This document shows positions 7,971-62,845 of a stretch of 64,000 nucleotides of DNA, in pieces. Source of the stretch: Desulfofustis sp. PB-SRB1 (GTDB lineage: Bacteria > Desulfobacterota > Desulfobulbia > Desulfobulbales > Desulfocapsaceae); contig JAEQMT010000009.1 in NCBI GenBank assembly GCA_016722945.1, forward strand, positions 1-64,000, written 5' to 3'. Under the pieces are notes generated by a model, which was not told the origin of the DNA, did no database searches, and saw only the letters and a program-made list of their open reading frames with translations. Numbering within the stretch: position 1 is the first letter of the stretch; every line of letters starts with the position of its first letter. Both the position numbers and the translations under genes were made by a program.

Positions 7971-9686
7971 CTATTTTTGAAAATCCTTAATCGAAGAAGG
8001 TAACGACCCGTCAGGTAATACAACTTTTCTAATGATTGCTTCACTATGCAGACCCCATGGAAGAATAACACCTGAGTGACCACCTCTCCCCCCAGCAACA
8101 ACGATATGCACATCTTCAGGGAATCTTGTTACTGGCATTGGGTGTCTTTTCTCAAATTCAGGGGGTCTTACTGGCTTGATTCCACGGCCTTTTAACATGG
8201 GTACCTCATTGGTCGCCCTTTGATGGATATGCTCACGAATCATGTCTTTGGTCCATCCATCATTATCAAGCATCCAGCTATGATCAGGGGTCAATATTAG
8301 TATTAAAGGTCCAGTTATGTATGCGTTATTGCTGCCTAATGTTGTGCAACAGTCGACAATAGTATCCAGTAGATCCTCAGCAGTTAAACTTAAAAAATCT
8401 ATAATGTCATGGAGGGCTTCTGCCTTCAAAACCATTACAGTGGTTGTCTTCTCATCATAACATTCCGCATTTATGGTGTTCCATGGGGTTAAACTTGGCT
8501 CTTCAGCAAAGCAATAAGTTAATTCAGCCTGGCAGGATACATTTGCCAGGTCTGCTATGCCAGGTACGGCACGGCATACGTTTATGCAAGCAAGGTTGAC
8601 CGCCCTTCCCACTGTTAAGTTCTCAGGGAAACCAGGTCCTAAACATCCTTGACCTCCGTATAGTCCTACTTCCTGGGCTAGTGGACCACTAACCAAAACA
8701 AGATTTCCTCCTGGGTGTGATGTAGTGACAGCTTGAAGCAAGTTATAATTTGGATCTGCCATTGCCTGAAATGCTGTCACCAAGATAGGCATATGATGGG
8801 GTTTACAACCTGCCATAACAGATGCTATGGCGACATCACTAACGAGAATATCCTTGCCAGAAGGGCCAATCTTTTCTGCCAACACTGTACCCGGGTCGAA
8901 TGGGCAGTACGTGAGCATTTTATCATATCGTCGACGTGTTGGAGGGATAATCGGCAACCCATCACTAATATGTAAGTCATTGTAAACATCTATAATTTGC
9001 TGAATTCCGGGAGCTGGTTCTTTAAGTTCTACTTCACTAAGCTGAATCTTTTCGCCAATATCGTCAGGCTCATCTTTACCTGTCACATCAGTATCAATCT
9101 CGAACTGCAGGTCTGCACGCTTTTCAATTTCACCGGGAGGCAATAAAAATGCATCCATCATTGATGACCATTGTTCATTAATCATGGTCTCAATCTCATG
9201 ATCCGTGCTACCAGGGAAAAGCTCTTCTAGTGAGGTAATACAAAGCTGTCCTGAACGATAATGTGCAGTTGCTTTTGAAATTGCGGTTCCTGGGGGAGCA
9301 GTAATGTACAATGTTGGGATGCCAAGTTTTTCCAGAGCGATAGTAATGATTGTGCAAGCTGGGCTTACCCCAATATCGCCAATTGCTACAATGGCTGCCG
9401 TTGGTCTTTCAGCTGCCAGTTTTGCAGCATAATCTAATAAATCTTGATTTGATTTACCTCTTGGGGTTTCTATGAAGTCCACTACATTTTCAATTCCTTC
9501 ATCGGCAAGCTTCTTTTTTACATGATGAAAGATGGTCATGTAATTGTTGTGCAAAAGCTTAGTATTGTTATAAAAAACAATCTTACCCTTCTGCAACTCT
9601 TCAATTGATGGCCGTGGTGCCAATTTCATTAGCTCCCTAGGCTGCTTGCCTCTTGGGTCTATGAGTTTTCCTTTTAAACGACTCAT
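7971..9686 (-). CDS. UGSC-like two-domain protein, paralog 1
   Basis: 571 residues, soluble, no signal peptide. The N-terminal domain (about 30-200) is an alpha/beta fold with GDIGVSPACTIITIALEKLG, which resembles the UGSC-motif domain of uncharacterised (seleno)proteins. Here the Sec position appears to be Ile, with a Cys three residues after the Ser. The C-terminal domain (about 235-570) carries DGLPIIPPTRRRYDKML, VMAGCKPHHMPILV, TTSHPGGNLVLVSGPLAQE, GQGCLGPGFPENLTVGRAVN and RGGHSGVILPWGLHSE, hallmarks of a widespread family of unknown activity. It is the last gene of a minus-strand set with its paralog and the tct transporter genes; a role in catabolism of the transported substrate is inferred. 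ATG 9686 follows an AGGAGA site. Confidence 0.7.
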   Translation of the reverse strand: MSRLKGKLIDPRGKQPRELMKLAPRPSIEELQKGKIVFYNNTKLLHNNYMTIFHHVKKKLADEGIENVVDFIETPRGKSNQDLLDYAAKLAAERPTAAIVAIGDIGVSPACTIITIALEKLGIPTLYITAPPGTAISKATAHYRSGQLCITSLEELFPGSTDHEIETMINEQWSSMMDAFLLPPGEIEKRADLQFEIDTDVTGKDEPDDIGEKIQLSEVELKEPAPGIQQIIDVYNDLHISDGLPIIPPTRRRYDKMLTYCPFDPGTVLAEKIGPSGKDILVSDVAIASVMAGCKPHHMPILVTAFQAMADPNYNLLQAVTTSHPGGNLVLVSGPLAQEVGLYGGQGCLGPGFPENLTVGRAVNLACINVCRAVPGIADLANVSCQAELTYCFAEEPSLTPWNTINAECYDEKTTTVMVLKAEALHDIIDFLSLTAEDLLDTIVDCCTTLGSNNAYITGPLILILTPDHSWMLDNDGWTKDMIREHIHQRATNEVPMLKGRGIKPVRPPEFEKRHPMPVTRFPEDVHIVVAGGRGGHSGVILPWGLHSEAIIRKVVLPDGSLPSSIKDFQK

Positions 9687-9826: not shown

Positions 9827-11542
9827 CTATCGTTTGAAGGATTCTATAGACCGAGGCAATGAGCCGTCCGGCAATGCTACTGGTTCTACGATTCCTTCAC
9901 TATGCAATGCCCACGGCAGAATAACACCATTGTGACCACCTCTGCCTCCAACTACCACAATTTCTATGTCTTCGGGAAAGCGAGTTACTGGCATTGGATG
10001 CATGTTCTCAAAGGACTTCGGTCGTACGGGCACTATACCGCGGCCTCTAATCATGGGAACTTCATTGGTAGCCCGTGCATGGATATGTTCACGGATAGCA
10101 TTTTTGGTCCAGCCAGCGAGATCAAACATCTTTGCATGGTCAGGAGTTAGGATCACTAATAGTGGACCTGGAAGATAAGCATTATTTGAACCAAGCGTGG
10201 TTGAACAATGAACGATGGTGTCAAGAAGATCATAAGCGTTGTTGCTTAATAATTCTATAATGTCATGAATAGGTTCAGCTTTCATGACATAGACTGTAGT
10301 TGTCTGTTCATCGTATCTTTCAGCATTAATAGTTTCCCATGGTGATAATTCAGAATCTTCAGCAAAACAGTACGTCAATTCTGCCTGGGATGAAATATTT
10401 GCAAGATCAGCGACACCCGGTATAGATCTGCAAGTATTAATAATGGCAAGGTTTACCGCTCTACCGATGGTCAGATTGGCTGGAAATCCAGGCCCTAAAC
10501 ATCCTTGACCAGAATGAATGCCGACCTCTTGGGCTAGCGGTCCACTAACCAACACCAGATTACCGCCGGGATGTGATGTGGTCACTGACTGGTGAAAATT
10601 GTATTTTTTATTTGCCAGTGCTTTAAATGCAGTTACCACTATCGGCATAGCCTGCGGCTTGCAACCTGCCATAACAGCGGAAACCACAAGATCACGAACA
10701 TGAATATCGTTGCCGGTTGGGCCAATTTCTTCGACCATCACCATGTCAGGATCGAAAGGACAATATGAGAGCATCTCATCGTAACGGTTTCTAGACGGTG
10801 GAATTATTGGTAAACCATCACCAATCTTAATTTCATTGAAGAGATCTGTTATTTCCTCGATGCCAGCAGCCGGTTCATCCGCCTCCTTAGTATCAAGCTG
10901 TATTCTTTCCGTCAGGTTAATAAGTCCATTATTTCCCGCTACATCCTTATCAAATTTATAGTTCAGGTCAGCACGCTTTTCTAAGTCTTCGCCAGTGAGG
11001 AGTAAGGCATCCATGATTTCCCGCCACTGGTTGTCGATCTCTGCTCTGACCTCCTCAATCGTACTTGCCTGGTAAATATCTACGGAAGTAATACATAGAT
11101 GCCCCGCCCGATAATTGGCTACTGCCCTTACCAGGTTTGTGCCCGGAGGAGCCGTGAAATAAAGGGTTGGGATGCCCAACTCTTCGAGAGCGATAGCTAC
11201 TATAGTAGTAGCTGAACTTGTTCCCATATCTCCCATTGCTACAAATGCGGCAACTGGTTTTTCTTTTGCCATGTATGCAGCCCAATCTTTTTGATCTTGA
11301 GTTGATTTTCCCCGGACTGTCTCGACAAAATCGACAAAGTTGGTAAAACCTTCTTCTCTCAATCGTTCTTTCAGACGTGTGAAAGTCTCCATGTAATTGC
11401 AGAAGGCAAGCTTTGTATTGTCATAGAAAAGAATTGGGCCTTTTCTTAGTTCCTCTAAACTTGGTCGGGGGGCAAGCTGTAGACGCTTGGTGTTCTGCTG
11501 ACCACGGGGGTCGATGACAGTTCCAAGATGAATCTTTCCCAT
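9827..11542 (-). CDS. UGSC-like two-domain protein, paralog 2
   Basis: 571 residues, the same length and domain order as the gene downstream, and clearly homologous throughout. The UGSC-like loop reads GDMGTSSATTIVAIALEELG: the Cys of paralog 1 is Thr here, so any thiol chemistry at this site cannot be shared. The C-terminal signatures are conserved (DGLPIIPPSRNRYDEML, VMAGCKPQAMPIVV, HPGGNLVLVSGPLAQEVG, GQGCLGPGFPANLTIGRA). A shared equal length plus divergence at the putative active loop suggests a heteromeric complex of two specialised subunits; this is an inference. ATG 11542 with GAAGGAG upstream. A strong hairpin lies in the leader. Confidence 0.7.
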   Translation of the reverse strand: MGKIHLGTVIDPRGQQNTKRLQLAPRPSLEELRKGPILFYDNTKLAFCNYMETFTRLKERLREEGFTNFVDFVETVRGKSTQDQKDWAAYMAKEKPVAAFVAMGDMGTSSATTIVAIALEELGIPTLYFTAPPGTNLVRAVANYRAGHLCITSVDIYQASTIEEVRAEIDNQWREIMDALLLTGEDLEKRADLNYKFDKDVAGNNGLINLTERIQLDTKEADEPAAGIEEITDLFNEIKIGDGLPIIPPSRNRYDEMLSYCPFDPDMVMVEEIGPTGNDIHVRDLVVSAVMAGCKPQAMPIVVTAFKALANKKYNFHQSVTTSHPGGNLVLVSGPLAQEVGIHSGQGCLGPGFPANLTIGRAVNLAIINTCRSIPGVADLANISSQAELTYCFAEDSELSPWETINAERYDEQTTTVYVMKAEPIHDIIELLSNNAYDLLDTIVHCSTTLGSNNAYLPGPLLVILTPDHAKMFDLAGWTKNAIREHIHARATNEVPMIRGRGIVPVRPKSFENMHPMPVTRFPEDIEIVVVGGRGGHNGVILPWALHSEGIVEPVALPDGSLPRSIESFKR

Positions 11543-11603: not shown

Positions 11604-11627
11604 CAAATCTCATATGTTGTTAATTAT

Positions 11628-13558
11628 GATGAGCTCGTAAAAACCTAAAATCGAAATCCAAGCCGATTCGTTGGAGTCGGCAGAAGCGCCGCAAGCCTGA
11701 CATTTAATGTAGTCATGAATGGCGCATACTGATGCGTGAAACGACTCCACCAGGCAAAACAGGCCGGCATTGTCCCACATTGTGGTGATATGGGCGTGCA
11801 GCGCCGCTTCCACTGTCGTGCCGCCCGGAAAATATTCACCCCCACGGCCTTCATCACCGCGGCAAATCCAACCGCCTTCATGCCCCGCACCCTGAGATGC
11901 TTCACCCCGGTGCGCCGATCAAACTCCGACATCGTTGCCTCGACACCGGCTCGATAGCGATATTTCTCTGTAAAGCCGGCTGTGGATTCACCCTGCCTCC
12001 TGCGTGCCAGGCGGATATCTTTGGTTGTATAGCGGAAGTAGCAGGCCTTCTTTCCTCTGCTTACCGGGCATCGGTCATATACCTCACACTGCAGGCAGTC
12101 ATGAGAGAAGGCAGCACTGAAGCCGCGTCTGGTTTTCTTGCATGTCTTCGGTGCCCGTCCTTCAGGGCAGGCGAGGACCCGGCCTTGTTCATCAAGGGAA
12201 CAATCAGCAAGAGACAGCTTGTCGGAGCTGCTGGTCATAACCGGGGCGATGACCCTCACCTCATAGTCTTGGTGCGCTGTTTCGCAGTTATCATCACTGC
12301 CGTACAGAGAGTCGGCAAGCAGTTCTTCAGGCAGCGCATCGTTGTGCTGCAAATCATCAAGGGCCGGGATCAGAGCGGCAGAATCATGCTTGTCGGCCGA
12401 TTCAACGGCGACATGAGTGATCAGTGACAGCCGTTTACCATCATCCTCATGCTCATCCTCATCCGTGCCTTTGCCGGTGTTCTGGTGCGCAGGATTGGTG
12501 GTATGGCTTTCCACCACCTGTATCTGATACCCTTGCCCTTTATGGCCGCTGTAGCCCGCATCGGGGTCTGAGGGGTTTTGCAACGAGTCGGAAGGGACTT
12601 CTTTGTTGGGCCGGGCAACCGCACGCGGTTCACCGCCCGTTTCTTGATCCACCACGCATTGTTCGGTGAACAGCCTGAGCAGCAGCTTGAATGATGCCAT
12701 ATCGCGCACCGCCGAAACGGCGCCCCCATGCTGAGTCAGGGTATACACATCCCGGGCGAGCTGATCAAGGGTGTGCTTGGACTCAGAGGGCTTGACCATG
12801 GCAAACAGAGATTCGCTGGTGGTGCTCATATAGCGGGTGACCAACTCCTGGTCGAGCCGGTCAAAGACCAGCCGGTGGTGGCGTTTGAGGTTCAGCAGGA
12901 ATTTCTTGATGGTTCGGACGAATAAGCCAATCCGTCCCAGGTGGCGCATGTTGGAGCGAATATGGACTGAATCCATGCGCTGCTTGCCAAGGTCTGCCTG
13001 GAAGAGCTTTTCCAGCGTCTTCAGAGCAGCGGTGAAGATTTCATGGTACAATGATTCGGTAGAGAGTGTGTCGCGCATCGACCATAGCGTCTTGGCGCTG
13101 ACGTAGGCGTGCTGATCGTCGAAACTGGCAATGTTCAAGGCATAATGCCATTGGATATTGAAACAGAATTGCTCAACCGCCCCGTCGTCGGTGAGATCGA
13201 ACATCTGCTGGAGAATCATCAGGCCCATCATGGAATACAATTCTTTGCTCGGGCGTCCGTTGTATTCATGGTAGTGGCTCCGTAATGCGTCAACCGGCAG
13301 CGAGGGGAGTATGTGTTTCTGAAACAAGCCGGCCCATGAGGTGTTCAGAGCGGTGCGTCTTTTGGGGCCAAGATGAGACCAGGGATCGAACAGGTAGGCT
13401 TGTTTGTGGGTTTTTACGTTAAACATGGGTTCACCTTGCATCGTATTGAAATTACAAGGATATTGTACCATGGAAGTAGTCTTGGGCAAACAATTTTTTG
13501 CAGGTTTTTACAATAATATTAAACGGTTGTGGTATAATAGACTTTTTACGACTTCATC
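11628..13558 (-). mobile_element. IS1182-type insertion sequence at the tctC stop codon
   Basis: 1931 bp with termini GATGAGCTCGTAAAAACCT (left) and, opposite strand, GATGAAGTCGTAAAAAGTC (right). It is flanked by a 6-bp duplication AATTAT (11622-11627 and 13559-13564). It encodes a single transposase. The ends match those of the short elements at 39073-39343, 46164-46462 and 47672-47831. Removing the element restores a TAA stop for tctC and joins tctC to the UGSC-like genes about 90 bp away. Confidence 0.88.
11645..13489 (-). CDS. IS1182-family transposase
   Basis: 614 residues, apparently intact. The N-terminus has the family opening (FDPWSHLGPKRRTALNTSWA, then LPSLPVDALRSHYHEYNGRP). The DDE core includes LGKQRMDSVHIRSNM (first Asp), PEELLADSLYGSDDN (second Asp) and YRYRAGVEATMSEFDRR (Glu) near residue 535. 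A Cys-rich insert (CLQCEVYDRCPVSRGKKAC) precedes the last motif, as is common in this family. ATG choice is uncertain: 13489 is given, but an internal ATG at the MFNVKTHKQAYLFDPW stretch (13426) starts closer to the conserved region. Confidence 0.9.
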   Translation of the reverse strand: MPKTTSMVQYPCNFNTMQGEPMFNVKTHKQAYLFDPWSHLGPKRRTALNTSWAGLFQKHILPSLPVDALRSHYHEYNGRPSKELYSMMGLMILQQMFDLTDDGAVEQFCFNIQWHYALNIASFDDQHAYVSAKTLWSMRDTLSTESLYHEIFTAALKTLEKLFQADLGKQRMDSVHIRSNMRHLGRIGLFVRTIKKFLLNLKRHHRLVFDRLDQELVTRYMSTTSESLFAMVKPSESKHTLDQLARDVYTLTQHGGAVSAVRDMASFKLLLRLFTEQCVVDQETGGEPRAVARPNKEVPSDSLQNPSDPDAGYSGHKGQGYQIQVVESHTTNPAHQNTGKGTDEDEHEDDGKRLSLITHVAVESADKHDSAALIPALDDLQHNDALPEELLADSLYGSDDNCETAHQDYEVRVIAPVMTSSSDKLSLADCSLDEQGRVLACPEGRAPKTCKKTRRGFSAAFSHDCLQCEVYDRCPVSRGKKACYFRYTTKDIRLARRRQGESTAGFTEKYRYRAGVEATMSEFDRRTGVKHLRVRGMKAVGFAAVMKAVGVNIFRAARQWKRRCTPISPQCGTMPACFAWWSRFTHQYAPFMTTLNVRLAALLPTPTNRLGFRF

Positions 13559-14534
13559 AATTATCAATGTATTTCTTTTTTATCTCTTGAAAGAGCTTGA
13601 GATCTTCGCGCATCTGAGTTTCATATTCAGGACCTGGTATCCAGGTAGGTGCAAATCCAAATTTCTCACCAAATGCTGCAAAGTTGCTGCTTGATGCCGC
13701 TTGCGTTACTATCTCAATCAGCTTATCTACAACATCCTGAGGAGTATCTTTAGGAACGTATATGCCTCGTGTGATTCCTATTGAAATTGGAATGCCAATA
13801 TCATTTAAGGTTGCAACGCTTCGTAAGGGTTCATAGGTAATTTTTTCAAGAGATTGCCCGGTTCCAATCACGTTTATTACACCTGCCTTGGCCTCTGTAA
13901 GAAGCACTGGCGCATGGATTATACCGGCATCTACTTGGTTGCCTAGAAGAGCCTTTTTCAAATCAGCTCCACCTTGATAGGGAATAATACGAAAATCAAT
14001 TCCAGTATGTCCCTTAATCCCTGAAGCCATGATCATCTGTGCACCAGAGGGAGTAGCTGACCCAAGAGTCATCTTGCCTGGATTGTTCTTTGCTTCTTCC
14101 AGAAATTGCTCCATGGACGTTATACCACTATCCTTGTGGGATAAGATCCACGTGGGACTTGAGAAAAAACCACCGATATATTGAAAATCATCCAAACTTA
14201 GAGGTACTTCAGTAAAGGTGAGCGCTGCCAAAATATCGGTATCGCCATTCATAAGTATCGTATATCCGTCGGGCTTCGAACGTGCTACTTTGATAGATCC
14301 GGTGATGCCAGCCGCACCGGAAATGTTGTCGACAACCACATTCACCCCTTGTTCCTTTATAGCTTCTGCGATCCCTCTGCCTATGGAGTCAGTACCACCA
14401 CCAGCTTTCCATGGTACAACAAGGTGAATTGTGTCTTCAGGGTATTCTGCTGCTTTAACTTGCCCAGACATCATAAGAACTGCGGTTAAAAAGATGCCCA
14501 TGAGAATAAACAACCTTCTTTTCAATTGAGTCAT
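13557..14534 (-). CDS. tctC: TctC/Bug-family periplasmic solute-binding protein
   Basis: 325 residues. Signal peptide LFILMGIFLTAVLMMSGQ ending VKAAEYP. The mature part starts with the family text DTIHLVVPWKAGGGTDSIGR and contains NISGAAGITGSIKVARSKPD and IGITRGIYVPKDTPQDVV, typical of TctC/Bug receptors that bind carboxylates. It is the extracytoplasmic receptor of the tripartite transporter encoded by the two upstream genes (37-bp gap to tctA). The IS1182-type element starts at its stop codon, changing TAA to TGA without altering the protein. The ligand cannot be deduced. Confidence 0.92.
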   Translation of the reverse strand: MTQLKRRLFILMGIFLTAVLMMSGQVKAAEYPEDTIHLVVPWKAGGGTDSIGRGIAEAIKEQGVNVVVDNISGAAGITGSIKVARSKPDGYTILMNGDTDILAALTFTEVPLSLDDFQYIGGFFSSPTWILSHKDSGITSMEQFLEEAKNNPGKMTLGSATPSGAQMIMASGIKGHTGIDFRIIPYQGGADLKKALLGNQVDAGIIHAPVLLTEAKAGVINVIGTGQSLEKITYEPLRSVATLNDIGIPISIGITRGIYVPKDTPQDVVDKLIEIVTQAASSSNFAAFGEKFGFAPTWIPGPEYETQMREDLKLFQEIKKKYIDN

Positions 14535-36435: not shown

Positions 36436-36476
36436 CCCGCGGTTTTACGACGCCATCATTAATTAGGGAGAGTAAT

Positions 36477-39028: not shown

Positions 39029-39072
39029 TGCGCGTTCTCTGCGATATTTACTGTTTCTCTCGCATATGGTCT

Positions 39073-39203
39073 GATGGCGTCATAAAACTTCGCTTTACGC
39101 CGTCGATGCATCGCGTTGACTTCCAGACATAGCATGTGTACGCCTGCGAGAGCAAAATACTGAGCCATCCTTAACCGCAAGATCGAATTTTTACCAGAGC
39201 ATC
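39073..39203. mobile_element. Miniature element, degenerate copy (first of tandem pair)
   Basis: 131 bp between 7-bp copies of ATGGTCT (39066-39072 and 39204-39210). Ends GATGGCGTCATAAAACTT and, opposite strand, GATGCTCTGGTAAAAATTC are diverged forms of the family termini. No ORF. Confidence 0.65.
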
Positions 39204-39210
39204 ATGGTCT

Positions 39211-39343
39211 GATGCTTTCGTAAAAACCAATATACCAGTCATAACGGAGTTGACCTGACATTCATAATTAATTGAAATCACTGGATTCCCGCTTTCGCGG
39301 GAATGACGGTAGCAAGCAATTTTGAGGTTTTTACGAGTTCATC
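39211..39343. mobile_element. Miniature element (second of tandem pair)
   Basis: 133 bp between ATGGTCT at 39204-39210 and 39344-39350. Ends GATGCTTTCGTAAAAACC and, opposite strand, GATGAACTCGTAAAAACCTC. The core contains GGATTCCCGCTTTCGCGGGA, a strong hairpin. It differs from 46330-46462 at only about four positions. Termini match the IS1182-type element at 11628-13558. Confidence 0.85.
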
Positions 39344-39409
39344 ATGGTCTGATAGTGCTGAAATGTATAGAGAGTATCTTTTTTTTCATAGCCATCACAA
39401 CAAAGGAAT

Positions 39410-46130: not shown

Positions 46131-46163
46131 GTGGTTTTAGATAGTTTGCAAAAAATGATTATT

Positions 46164-46323
46164 GATGAATCTGTAAAAGCCCCGATATTGCCTGCTTTCG
46201 TCATTCCCGCCCTCGATAACAACACTCAAGGGCAGGCTGCAGCAGGAATCCAGTAATCTCGAGTAGTTCTGGATTTGGGGTCAGCTTAACCATGATGGCA
46301 ACTGGGATTTTTACGACGCCATC
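46164..46323. mobile_element. Miniature element, long form (first of tandem pair)
   Basis: 160 bp, ends GATGAATCTGTAAAAGCC and, opposite strand, GATGGCGTCGTAAAAATCC. Flanked by ATTATT (46158-46163) and ATTGTT (46324-46329), a slightly diverged duplication. The core CCCTCGATAACAACACTCAA and GGGCAGGCTGCAGC matches the long copy at 47672-47831. Confidence 0.75.
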
Positions 46324-46329
46324 ATTGTT

Positions 46330-46462
46330 GATGCTTTCGTAAAAACCCATATTCCAGTCATAACGGAGCTGACCTGACATTCATAATTAATTGAAATCAC
46401 TGGATTCCCGCTTTCGCGGGAATGACGGTAGCGAGCAATTTTGAGGTTTTTACGAGTTCATC
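46330..46462. mobile_element. Miniature element, short form (second of tandem pair)
   Basis: 133 bp between ATTGTT at 46324-46329 and 46463-46468. Ends GATGCTTTCGTAAAAACC and, opposite strand, GATGAACTCGTAAAAACCTC. Nearly identical to 39211-39343, including the GATTCCCGC-TTTC-GCGGGAAT hairpin. Confidence 0.88.
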
Positions 46463-46533
46463 ATTGTTCATGTGGTTATAAAAAAGGTAGATTATCGAAG
46501 TTCCCCTGTGAATCTAAACGACAAGGAGCGAAT

Positions 46534-47671: not shown

Positions 47672-47831
47672 GATGGGCTCGTAAAAACCTCGAAATTGGT
47701 TGCTGACGTCCTTCCCACCCTCGATAACAACACTTAAGGGCAGGCTGCAGCGGGAATCCAGTAGTTTCAACTAATTATGGATGTCGGGTCAACTCCAGCA
47801 TGACTGGAATATAGGTTTTTACGTAAGCATC
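47672..47831. mobile_element. Miniature element, long form
   Basis: 160 bp with perfect 6-bp duplication ATCTAA (47666-47671 and 47832-47837). Ends GATGGGCTCGTAAAAACCTC and, opposite strand, GATGCTTACGTAAAAACC. The right duplication includes the stop codon of the MOT1-type gene. The core matches 46164-46323. It lies between convergent genes. Confidence 0.9.
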
Positions 47832-62773: not shown

Positions 62774-62845
62774 GATGGACTCGTAAAAACCTCAAAATTG
62801 CTTGCTTTCGTCATTCCCGCGAATGCGGGAATCCAGTGATTGAAG
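62774..62845. mobile_element. Half of a miniature element
   Basis: GATGGACTCGTAAAAACCTC at 62774, then the family core AAAATTGCTTGCTTTCGTCA and ATTCCCGC-GAAT-GCGGGAAT hairpin to about 62842. The other half is missing; the sequence changes at the start of the GGAACCTTGAAAAATG inverted repeat. Confidence 0.75.

What the first reader, a model, noticed from the sequence alone, without database searches (positions are those of the whole stretch)
39066..39350. Tandem miniature elements separated by shared target duplications
ATGGTCT occurs three times (39066, 39204, 39344), each at an element border: target-element-target-element-target. The same layout appears at 46158-46468 with ATTATT/ATTGTT/ATTGTT. 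So the elements repeatedly inserted into the border of an existing copy, or an unequal exchange made dimers. A preference for their own ends as target is unusual.
Basis: seen in the sequence. Interest (0 to 1): 0.55.

Follow-up and report, generated by a model that had tools for sequence, protein, structure and literature searches.

The report
Mini-transposons that insert beside themselves
These are short parasitic DNA pieces that landed again and again at the edge of copies already present, probably because the enzyme that moves them accepts their own ends as a landing site; a few transposons are known to do this, and here the pattern is seen in many genomes of one group of bacteria.

Summary
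The elements are MITEs (GATGnnnTCGTAAAAA...TTTTTACGAnnnCATC) with 6- or 7-bp target duplications. They share their ends with an IS1182-like insertion sequence in the same window (11628-13558). These are not two isolated dimers. In the sampled part of this genome 43 of 135 insertions abut another end; 46 of the 49 such ends within 28 bp lie at exactly 6 or 7 bp. A second genome gives 18 of 66. Unequal exchange is not supported: pair members are no more alike than random elements (median identity 0.59 against 0.66). The spacer matches both outer duplications in 9 of 23 pairs and one in 10; in other genomes 24 and 21 of 50. No pair shows the pattern of a dimer moving as a unit. Solo target sites resemble the element tip. 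Best reading: serial insertion, with a terminal repeat serving as target half-site. One-sided pairs are commoner than the simplest model predicts. IS30 is a precedent for own-end targeting; this is a new variant in an IS1182-like group.

The parts
39066..39072 (.). first copy of the 7-bp duplication ATGGTCT
39073..39203 (.). MITE, first member of dimer 1 (131 bp; ends with 2 and 1 mismatches of 13)
39204..39210 (.). shared duplication ATGGTCT between the members
39211..39343 (.). MITE, second member of dimer 1 (133 bp, perfect ends; 48 matches listed for its 134-bp query in the genome)
39344..39350 (.). third copy of ATGGTCT
46158..46163 (.). outer duplication ATTATT (1 mismatch to the other two copies)
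46164..46323 (.). MITE, first member of dimer 2 (160 bp; left end with 3 mismatches of 13)
46324..46329 (.). shared duplication ATTGTT
46330..46462 (.). MITE, second member of dimer 2 (133 bp; 97% identical to 39211-39343)
46463..46468 (.). outer duplication ATTGTT
11628..13558 (-). IS1182-like insertion sequence with the same ends (1931 bp), flanked by AATTAT at 11622-11627 and 13559-13564; likely autonomous partner
11645..13489 (-). 614-aa transposase (DUF772, DDE_Tnp_1_6)
47672..47831 (.). solo MITE (160 bp) with 6-bp duplication ATCTAA, whose unusual last base is present in both copies

Best explanation
The elements are MITEs moved by an IS1182-like DDE transposase whose insertions duplicate 6 or 7 bp. 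The transposase also reads the target: it prefers A-N4/5-T with an end-like half-site beside it. A resident copy's end, GATG(G), is such a half-site, so a newcomer is often put exactly into the resident's own target duplication, which copies it once more and gives target-element-target-element-target. Each insertion leaves new good targets at its borders. Shown from sequence: anatomy, duplication length, exact spacing, sharing of spacer and outer duplication, unlike members, target consensus, link of these ends with this transposase group. Inferred: that the transposase itself recognises the end in the target, and that this IS (not a lost relative) moved these copies.
For: Spacing: 46 of 49 neighbouring ends within 28 bp at 6-7 bp; in the second genome 18 of 23. 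Spacer shared with one or both outer duplications in 19 of 23 pairs and 45 of 50 pairs elsewhere, against a chance of about 0.15 per side at spacing 6 and 0.08 at spacing 7. Members unlike. Solo sites: A...T in 83 of 88 duplication ends and outward R-A-N-G-G like the tip GATGG; the motif set in this genome is enriched in the second genome too (1.64 against 1.22, p=4e-4). End-like flanks with 4-6 mismatches have no element body at the junction (0 of 42). Outer flanks of pairs score like solo flanks (2.02 against 2.01, p=0.96), so the resident end is what differs. The 121-bp subfamily: 6 of 6 copies with >=93% identity abut an end. Transposase homologues: 9 of 11 loci have the same end (<=2 of 13 mismatches) beside the gene.
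Against: The additive profile from solo sites predicts only 0.6-0.9% of insertions beside ends, not 28-32%; solo sites were chosen without end-like neighbours, so it underestimates, but the gap is large. Of the pairs that share at least one duplication, 9 of 19 and 24 of 45 share both, fewer than the 65-72% of solo copies that keep a duplication within 1 mismatch. The G-G of the consensus does not recur in the second genome, nor in the 15 solo sites of other genomes. No related transposase was found in G058 or G028, which have the MITEs. End-like flanks are also raised at spacings 3-5 (27, 20 and 16 sides against about 9), which I take for shifted A-runs but did not test.
Confidence: 0.72

Rival explanations
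1. Unequal exchange or slippage between the direct duplications turned one element into a dimer.
For: It gives the same three-copy layout of the duplication (9 of 23 pairs).
Against: It predicts near-identical members; they are no more alike than random pairs and 0 of 49 scored pairs elsewhere reach 0.95, two being 0.94. One pair here reaches 0.90 (L111) and one 0.87 (L007).
Confidence: 0.02
2. Genomic hot spots: certain sites are simply good targets and were hit twice; the resident end plays no part.
For: There is a real target consensus, and pairs with all three copies equal reuse one target.
Against: Outer flanks of pairs score the same as solo flanks; the 121-bp subfamily abuts an end at six sites with different spacers, one of them a lone end with no element visible in the 180 bp printed.
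Confidence: 0.08
3. IS30-like joining: the transposase joins the ends of two separate copies and the DNA between them is lost, so that the spacer comes from one member's flank. This could account for pairs that share the duplication on one side only.
For: One-sided pairs (10 of 23 and 21 of 50) are commoner than serial insertion with solo-like residents predicts; IS30 is described as joining repeats of distant copies (PMC9333248).
Against: It does not explain the 9 and 24 pairs in which all three copies agree. Older-than-average residents and chance matches (0.08-0.15 per side) also raise the one-sided class.
Confidence: 0.1
4. Dimers form once and then move as units.
For: A few identical pairs occur twice in the assembly (C4 and C43), but their outer flanks are the same too, so they are duplicated contigs or a copied segment.
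Against: Expected: outer copies equal to each other and unlike the spacer; seen in 0 of 23 and 0 of 50 pairs.
Confidence: 0.02

Closest known systems
IS30 (dual target choice: hot spots or next to its own inverted repeats; PMC9333248, passages)
   Same: Inserts beside its own ends; hot spots described there as nearly palindromic.
   Different: Different transposase group; 2-bp duplications against 6-7 bp; IS30 works through joined-end intermediates, not testable here; here the actors are mostly MITEs.
IS1182 family, IS1272 (PMC5678879, outline, abstract and passages)
   Same: Related transposase (best NCBIfam model); target choice that involves inverted repeats.
   Different: IS1272 replaces stem-loops and leaves no duplication; here duplications are 6-7 bp and left and right flanks are not complementary beyond the consensus (p=0.27).
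Plant SaTar arrays and rice MITE clusters (PMC5907723, passages)
   Same: Side-by-side, non-nested arrays of unlike small elements; that paper also cites MITEs targeting MITEs.
   Different: Mutator-like plant elements joined by microsatellites; here the joint is one 6-7-bp target duplication between own ends.
Bacterial MITEs in general (recalled)
   Same: Short elements with the ends of an IS, target duplications and many copies.
   Different: 28-32% of sampled copies stand in tandem through a shared duplication.

Membership tests
MITE | short element with terminal inverted repeats and target duplication | tested here: met
   118-174 bp in this genome; exact 6- or 7-bp duplication in 68 of 155 records, which include two of IS size
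MITE | ends shared with an autonomous element | tested here: met
   perfect shared ends on the IS at 11628-13558; 9 of 11 homologue loci have the end beside the gene
IS1182 family | transposase above the curated NCBIfam cut-off NF033551 | tested here: not met
   134.5 bits, cut-off 270; hence only 'IS1182-like'
IS1182 family | DUF772 and DDE_Tnp_1_6 domains (recalled as typical) | tested here: met
   37.3 and 47.7 bits, above Pfam cut-offs 23.1 and 25.1
IS1272-type IR-replacing transposition | target is an inverted repeat, replaced, no duplication | tested here: not met
   duplications present; no palindromy beyond the consensus
IS30-type own-end targeting | insertion next to own inverted repeats | tested here: met
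   inferred from sequence only:
IS30 family | IS30 transposase and 2-bp duplication | tested here: not met
   no IS30 model among the NCBIfam or Pfam matches listed; duplications 6-7 bp
IS30-type own-end targeting | joined-end circle or dimer as active intermediate | not testable with these tools
   needs transposition assays or reads across excised circles

The most novel reading that the evidence does not exclude
A self-attracting transposition system: one DNA-recognition function of an IS1182-like transposase serves donor and target alike, so that each terminal repeat in the genome, even one without its element, acts as a landing site. The MITE population seeds its own arrays (the opposite of target immunity), and one subfamily (the 121-bp one) lives almost only beside other copies.
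Probability: 0.55. Interest if true: 0.6.

Novelty: new variant of a known kind. Interest (0 to 1): 0.5.

Why it matters
A tandem layout of mobile elements is easily put down to later recombination. Here it reads as target choice, with a sharp, countable signal in natural insertions of many genomes. It offers a test bed for how a DDE transposase may recognise target DNA with what binds its own ends, and it means that element density can feed back on where the next copy lands. Pairs sharing the duplication on one side also suggest which member is younger (inference).

Tried and rejected
The first boundary (TGATG...CATCA, 4/5-bp duplications) was dropped once unusual tip bases were found to match the far copy (8 of 10); later counts use GATG...CATC.

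Tested and not supported: unequal exchange, movement of dimers as units (0 of 73 pairs), decayed neighbours as the source of end-like flanks (0 of 42 with a body at the junction), better genomic flanks at tandem sites, left/right complementarity as for stem-loop targets. The solo profile alone under-predicts the tandem rate. The idea that the 121-bp subfamily always turns the same end to the resident did not hold (4 of 5 outside the trimer, by eye). Elements with a close relative (>=95%) are more often tandem (0.47 of 36 against about 0.26 of 99, Fisher p=0.036), but so are the 7 most diverged (0.71), so age is unclear. Twelve stretches of 1.5-2.1 kb between ends in other genomes looked like ordinary host genes by the start of their longest ORF, read by eye without a family search.

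Sampling and dropped rows: in this genome 155 elements were read from loci chosen by listed best matches and the first 100 listed perfect ends, out of 416 end matches; 2 IS-size records were left out and 153 merged to 135. Without loci fetched for their junctions the tandem rate is 36 of 128. In G058 the 100 listed ends of 932 were used. Of 103 junctions with a 6-7-bp spacer in other genomes, 24 were cut by the locus end and 29 had no partner end. Two of the 23 pairs in this genome (L014, L030) rest on a partner end with 4 mismatches and had no body by BLAST. Output was cut, so I repeated that scan more tightly.

Literature: six searches aimed at such arrays or at MITEs of this group listed no paper whose title or abstract start describes this case; listings only, except PMC5907723 (passages). 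Most subscription papers are not in the library.

Full report
What is there. The window is part of a 4.69-Mb draft genome (G000, 71 contigs). The genome's name is not known to me; matching junctions elsewhere are almost all in records titled as Desulfobacterota or Deltaproteobacteria MAGs. They consist of short elements whose ends read GATGnnnTCGTAAAAA and its reverse complement. The end pattern with the flanking T occurs 416 times in the genome with at most one mismatch, against 3 for the pattern read backwards.

Boundary and duplication length. I first took TGATG...CATCA as the element and saw duplications of 4 and 5 bp. Of 10 tips whose outermost base is unusual, 8 have the same base at the far copy, so this base belongs to the target (of 136 usual tips 129 match). 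With the boundary at GATG...CATC the duplication is exactly 6 bp in 48 and 7 bp in 20 of 155 elements, with none at 4, 5 or above 7; shuffled flanks expect 0.5 and 0.2. In G058 the figures are 35 and 2 of 66, with one each at 4 and 5.

Partner element. At 11628-13558 a 1931-bp element has both ends perfect and the duplication AATTAT. It codes for a 614-aa protein with DUF772 and DDE_Tnp_1_6. The best NCBIfam model is IS1182 at 134.5 bits, below its cut-off of 270, so I call it IS1182-like. Three copies (97-100% identity) were found in the genome; the other two show no duplication. In 198 genomes of the phylum, 18 match, this genome included. Of 11 homologue loci fetched, 9 have the same end with at most 2 of 13 mismatches beside the gene; two (L357, L364) do not within the limits set. 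L356 (48% identity) is a whole copy with duplication AATCTT. This links ends and transposase group. G058 and G028 have the MITEs but no match to the transposase.

How common tandems are. Of 135 distinct MITE insertions sampled, 43 have another end (<=3 of 13 mismatches) at 6-7 bp on at least one side. By side: 29 at 6 bp, 17 at 7 bp, 3 at all other spacings from 0 to 28. A body lies behind 43 of these 46 sides. Without loci fetched by the junction pattern, 36 of 128 remain. G058, sampled by ends alone, gives 18 of 66, with 14 sides at 6 bp, 4 at 7 and 5 at all other spacings to 28. Among 57 relatives only two had an exact junction (G028 with 4, G051 with 1).

How they arose. Of 23 pairs in this genome the spacer matches both outer duplications in 9, one in 10, neither in 4, within 1 mismatch. 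In other genomes: 24, 21 and 5 of 50. Chance is about 0.15 per side at spacing 6 and 0.08 at spacing 7. The pattern of a dimer that moved as a unit was not seen. Members of a pair are not more alike than random elements (0.587 against 0.658 median identity; 0.561 elsewhere, none of 49 at 0.95). So the members came separately, and in the pairs with all copies equal the second went into the first one's duplication. One point fits less well: pairs sharing both sides are 9 of 19 and 24 of 45 of those sharing any, while 65-72% of solo copies keep a duplication within 1 mismatch. Older residents, chance matches, or IS30-like joining of two copies could each add one-sided pairs; I cannot separate these.

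Why beside each other. Solo insertions with an exact duplication (44, after removing those beside a flank with 8 or more of 13 matches) show A first and T last in the duplication (83 of 88 ends) and an outward flank R-A-N-G-G (A at position 2, p=2e-5; G at 4 and 5, p=5e-4 and 2e-4), like the tip GATGG. By that profile the half-site TGATGG ranks at the 99.87th percentile of the window's 6-mers. The motif set in G000 is enriched in G058 (1.64 against 1.22, p=4e-4), there through R-A, with an A-run at positions 11-13 but not G-G. Flanks with 4-6 mismatches to the end are in excess at spacings 6 and 7 (25 and 23 sides, against about 9 at 8-28; spacings 3-5 are raised too, 27, 19-20 and 16). They have no element behind them at the junction (0 of 42), so they look like end-like targets, not decayed copies. 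Outer flanks of pairs equal solo flanks (2.02 against 2.01), so a resident end rather than a better genomic site goes with tandems. Left and right flanks are not complementary beyond the consensus (p=0.27) and do not score together (-0.23, p=0.14): one end-like side seems enough. An additive model predicts 0.6-0.9% of insertions beside ends, far below 28-32%, so ends seem to be recognised more strongly than the solo profile says.

A subfamily that lives beside others. Seven matches to the 121-bp element were found. All 6 with >=93% identity abut an end and have their own exact duplications, with six different spacers; in one (L287) no element is visible in the 180 bp printed behind that end. 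The seventh (87%) is solo.

Comparison. IS30 is the clear precedent for own-end targeting (PMC9333248, passages). IS1272 of the IS1182 family targets inverted repeats and replaces them without duplication (PMC5678879). Plant SaTar arrays are side-by-side arrays of unlike elements joined by microsatellites, and MITE-to-MITE targeting in plants is cited there (PMC5907723, passages). The present case works like IS30's end targeting but meets the defining features of neither IS family in full. I rate it a new variant of a known kind. What is shown is a pattern in sequence; recognition of the end by the transposase is inference.

Noticed in passing
window 39283-39307, 46402-46426, 62810-62834: A palindrome (GGATTCCCGCTTTCGCGGGAATGAC and a variant) sits inside some MITEs; it resembles the dRS3-type repeat of Neisseria (recalled, not tested). 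Its copies outside MITEs were not counted.
   Followed up: no
window 62774-62838 and 36442-36457: Single ends without a partner end nearby: cut-down copies or lone ends, which might serve as targets.
   Followed up: partly
window 13505-13521; L292 and L293 at 1470: The IS has a second, inner copy of the end's core about 38 bp inside one terminus, and the 155-162-bp MITEs have a similar inner copy about 34 bp from one end: perhaps a second binding site.
   Followed up: partly
G058 (records titled K_DeepCast_150m_m1_110): 932 end matches (<=1 mismatch) in 5.3 Mb but no match to the transposase: moved by a lost or missing partner.
   Followed up: partly
window 7971-9686 and 9827-11542: Two neighbouring 571-aa proteins with a weak UGSC-family match each, directly beside the IS.
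   Followed up: no
G000 contigs C15/C16 and C4/C43: Near-identical stretches with the same MITEs and flanks on different contigs: assembly duplicates, strain mixture or copied segments.
   Followed up: no
L349 (G058:C7:18415-18782): Five ends within 370 bp that look like elements nested inside one another rather than side by side.
   Followed up: no
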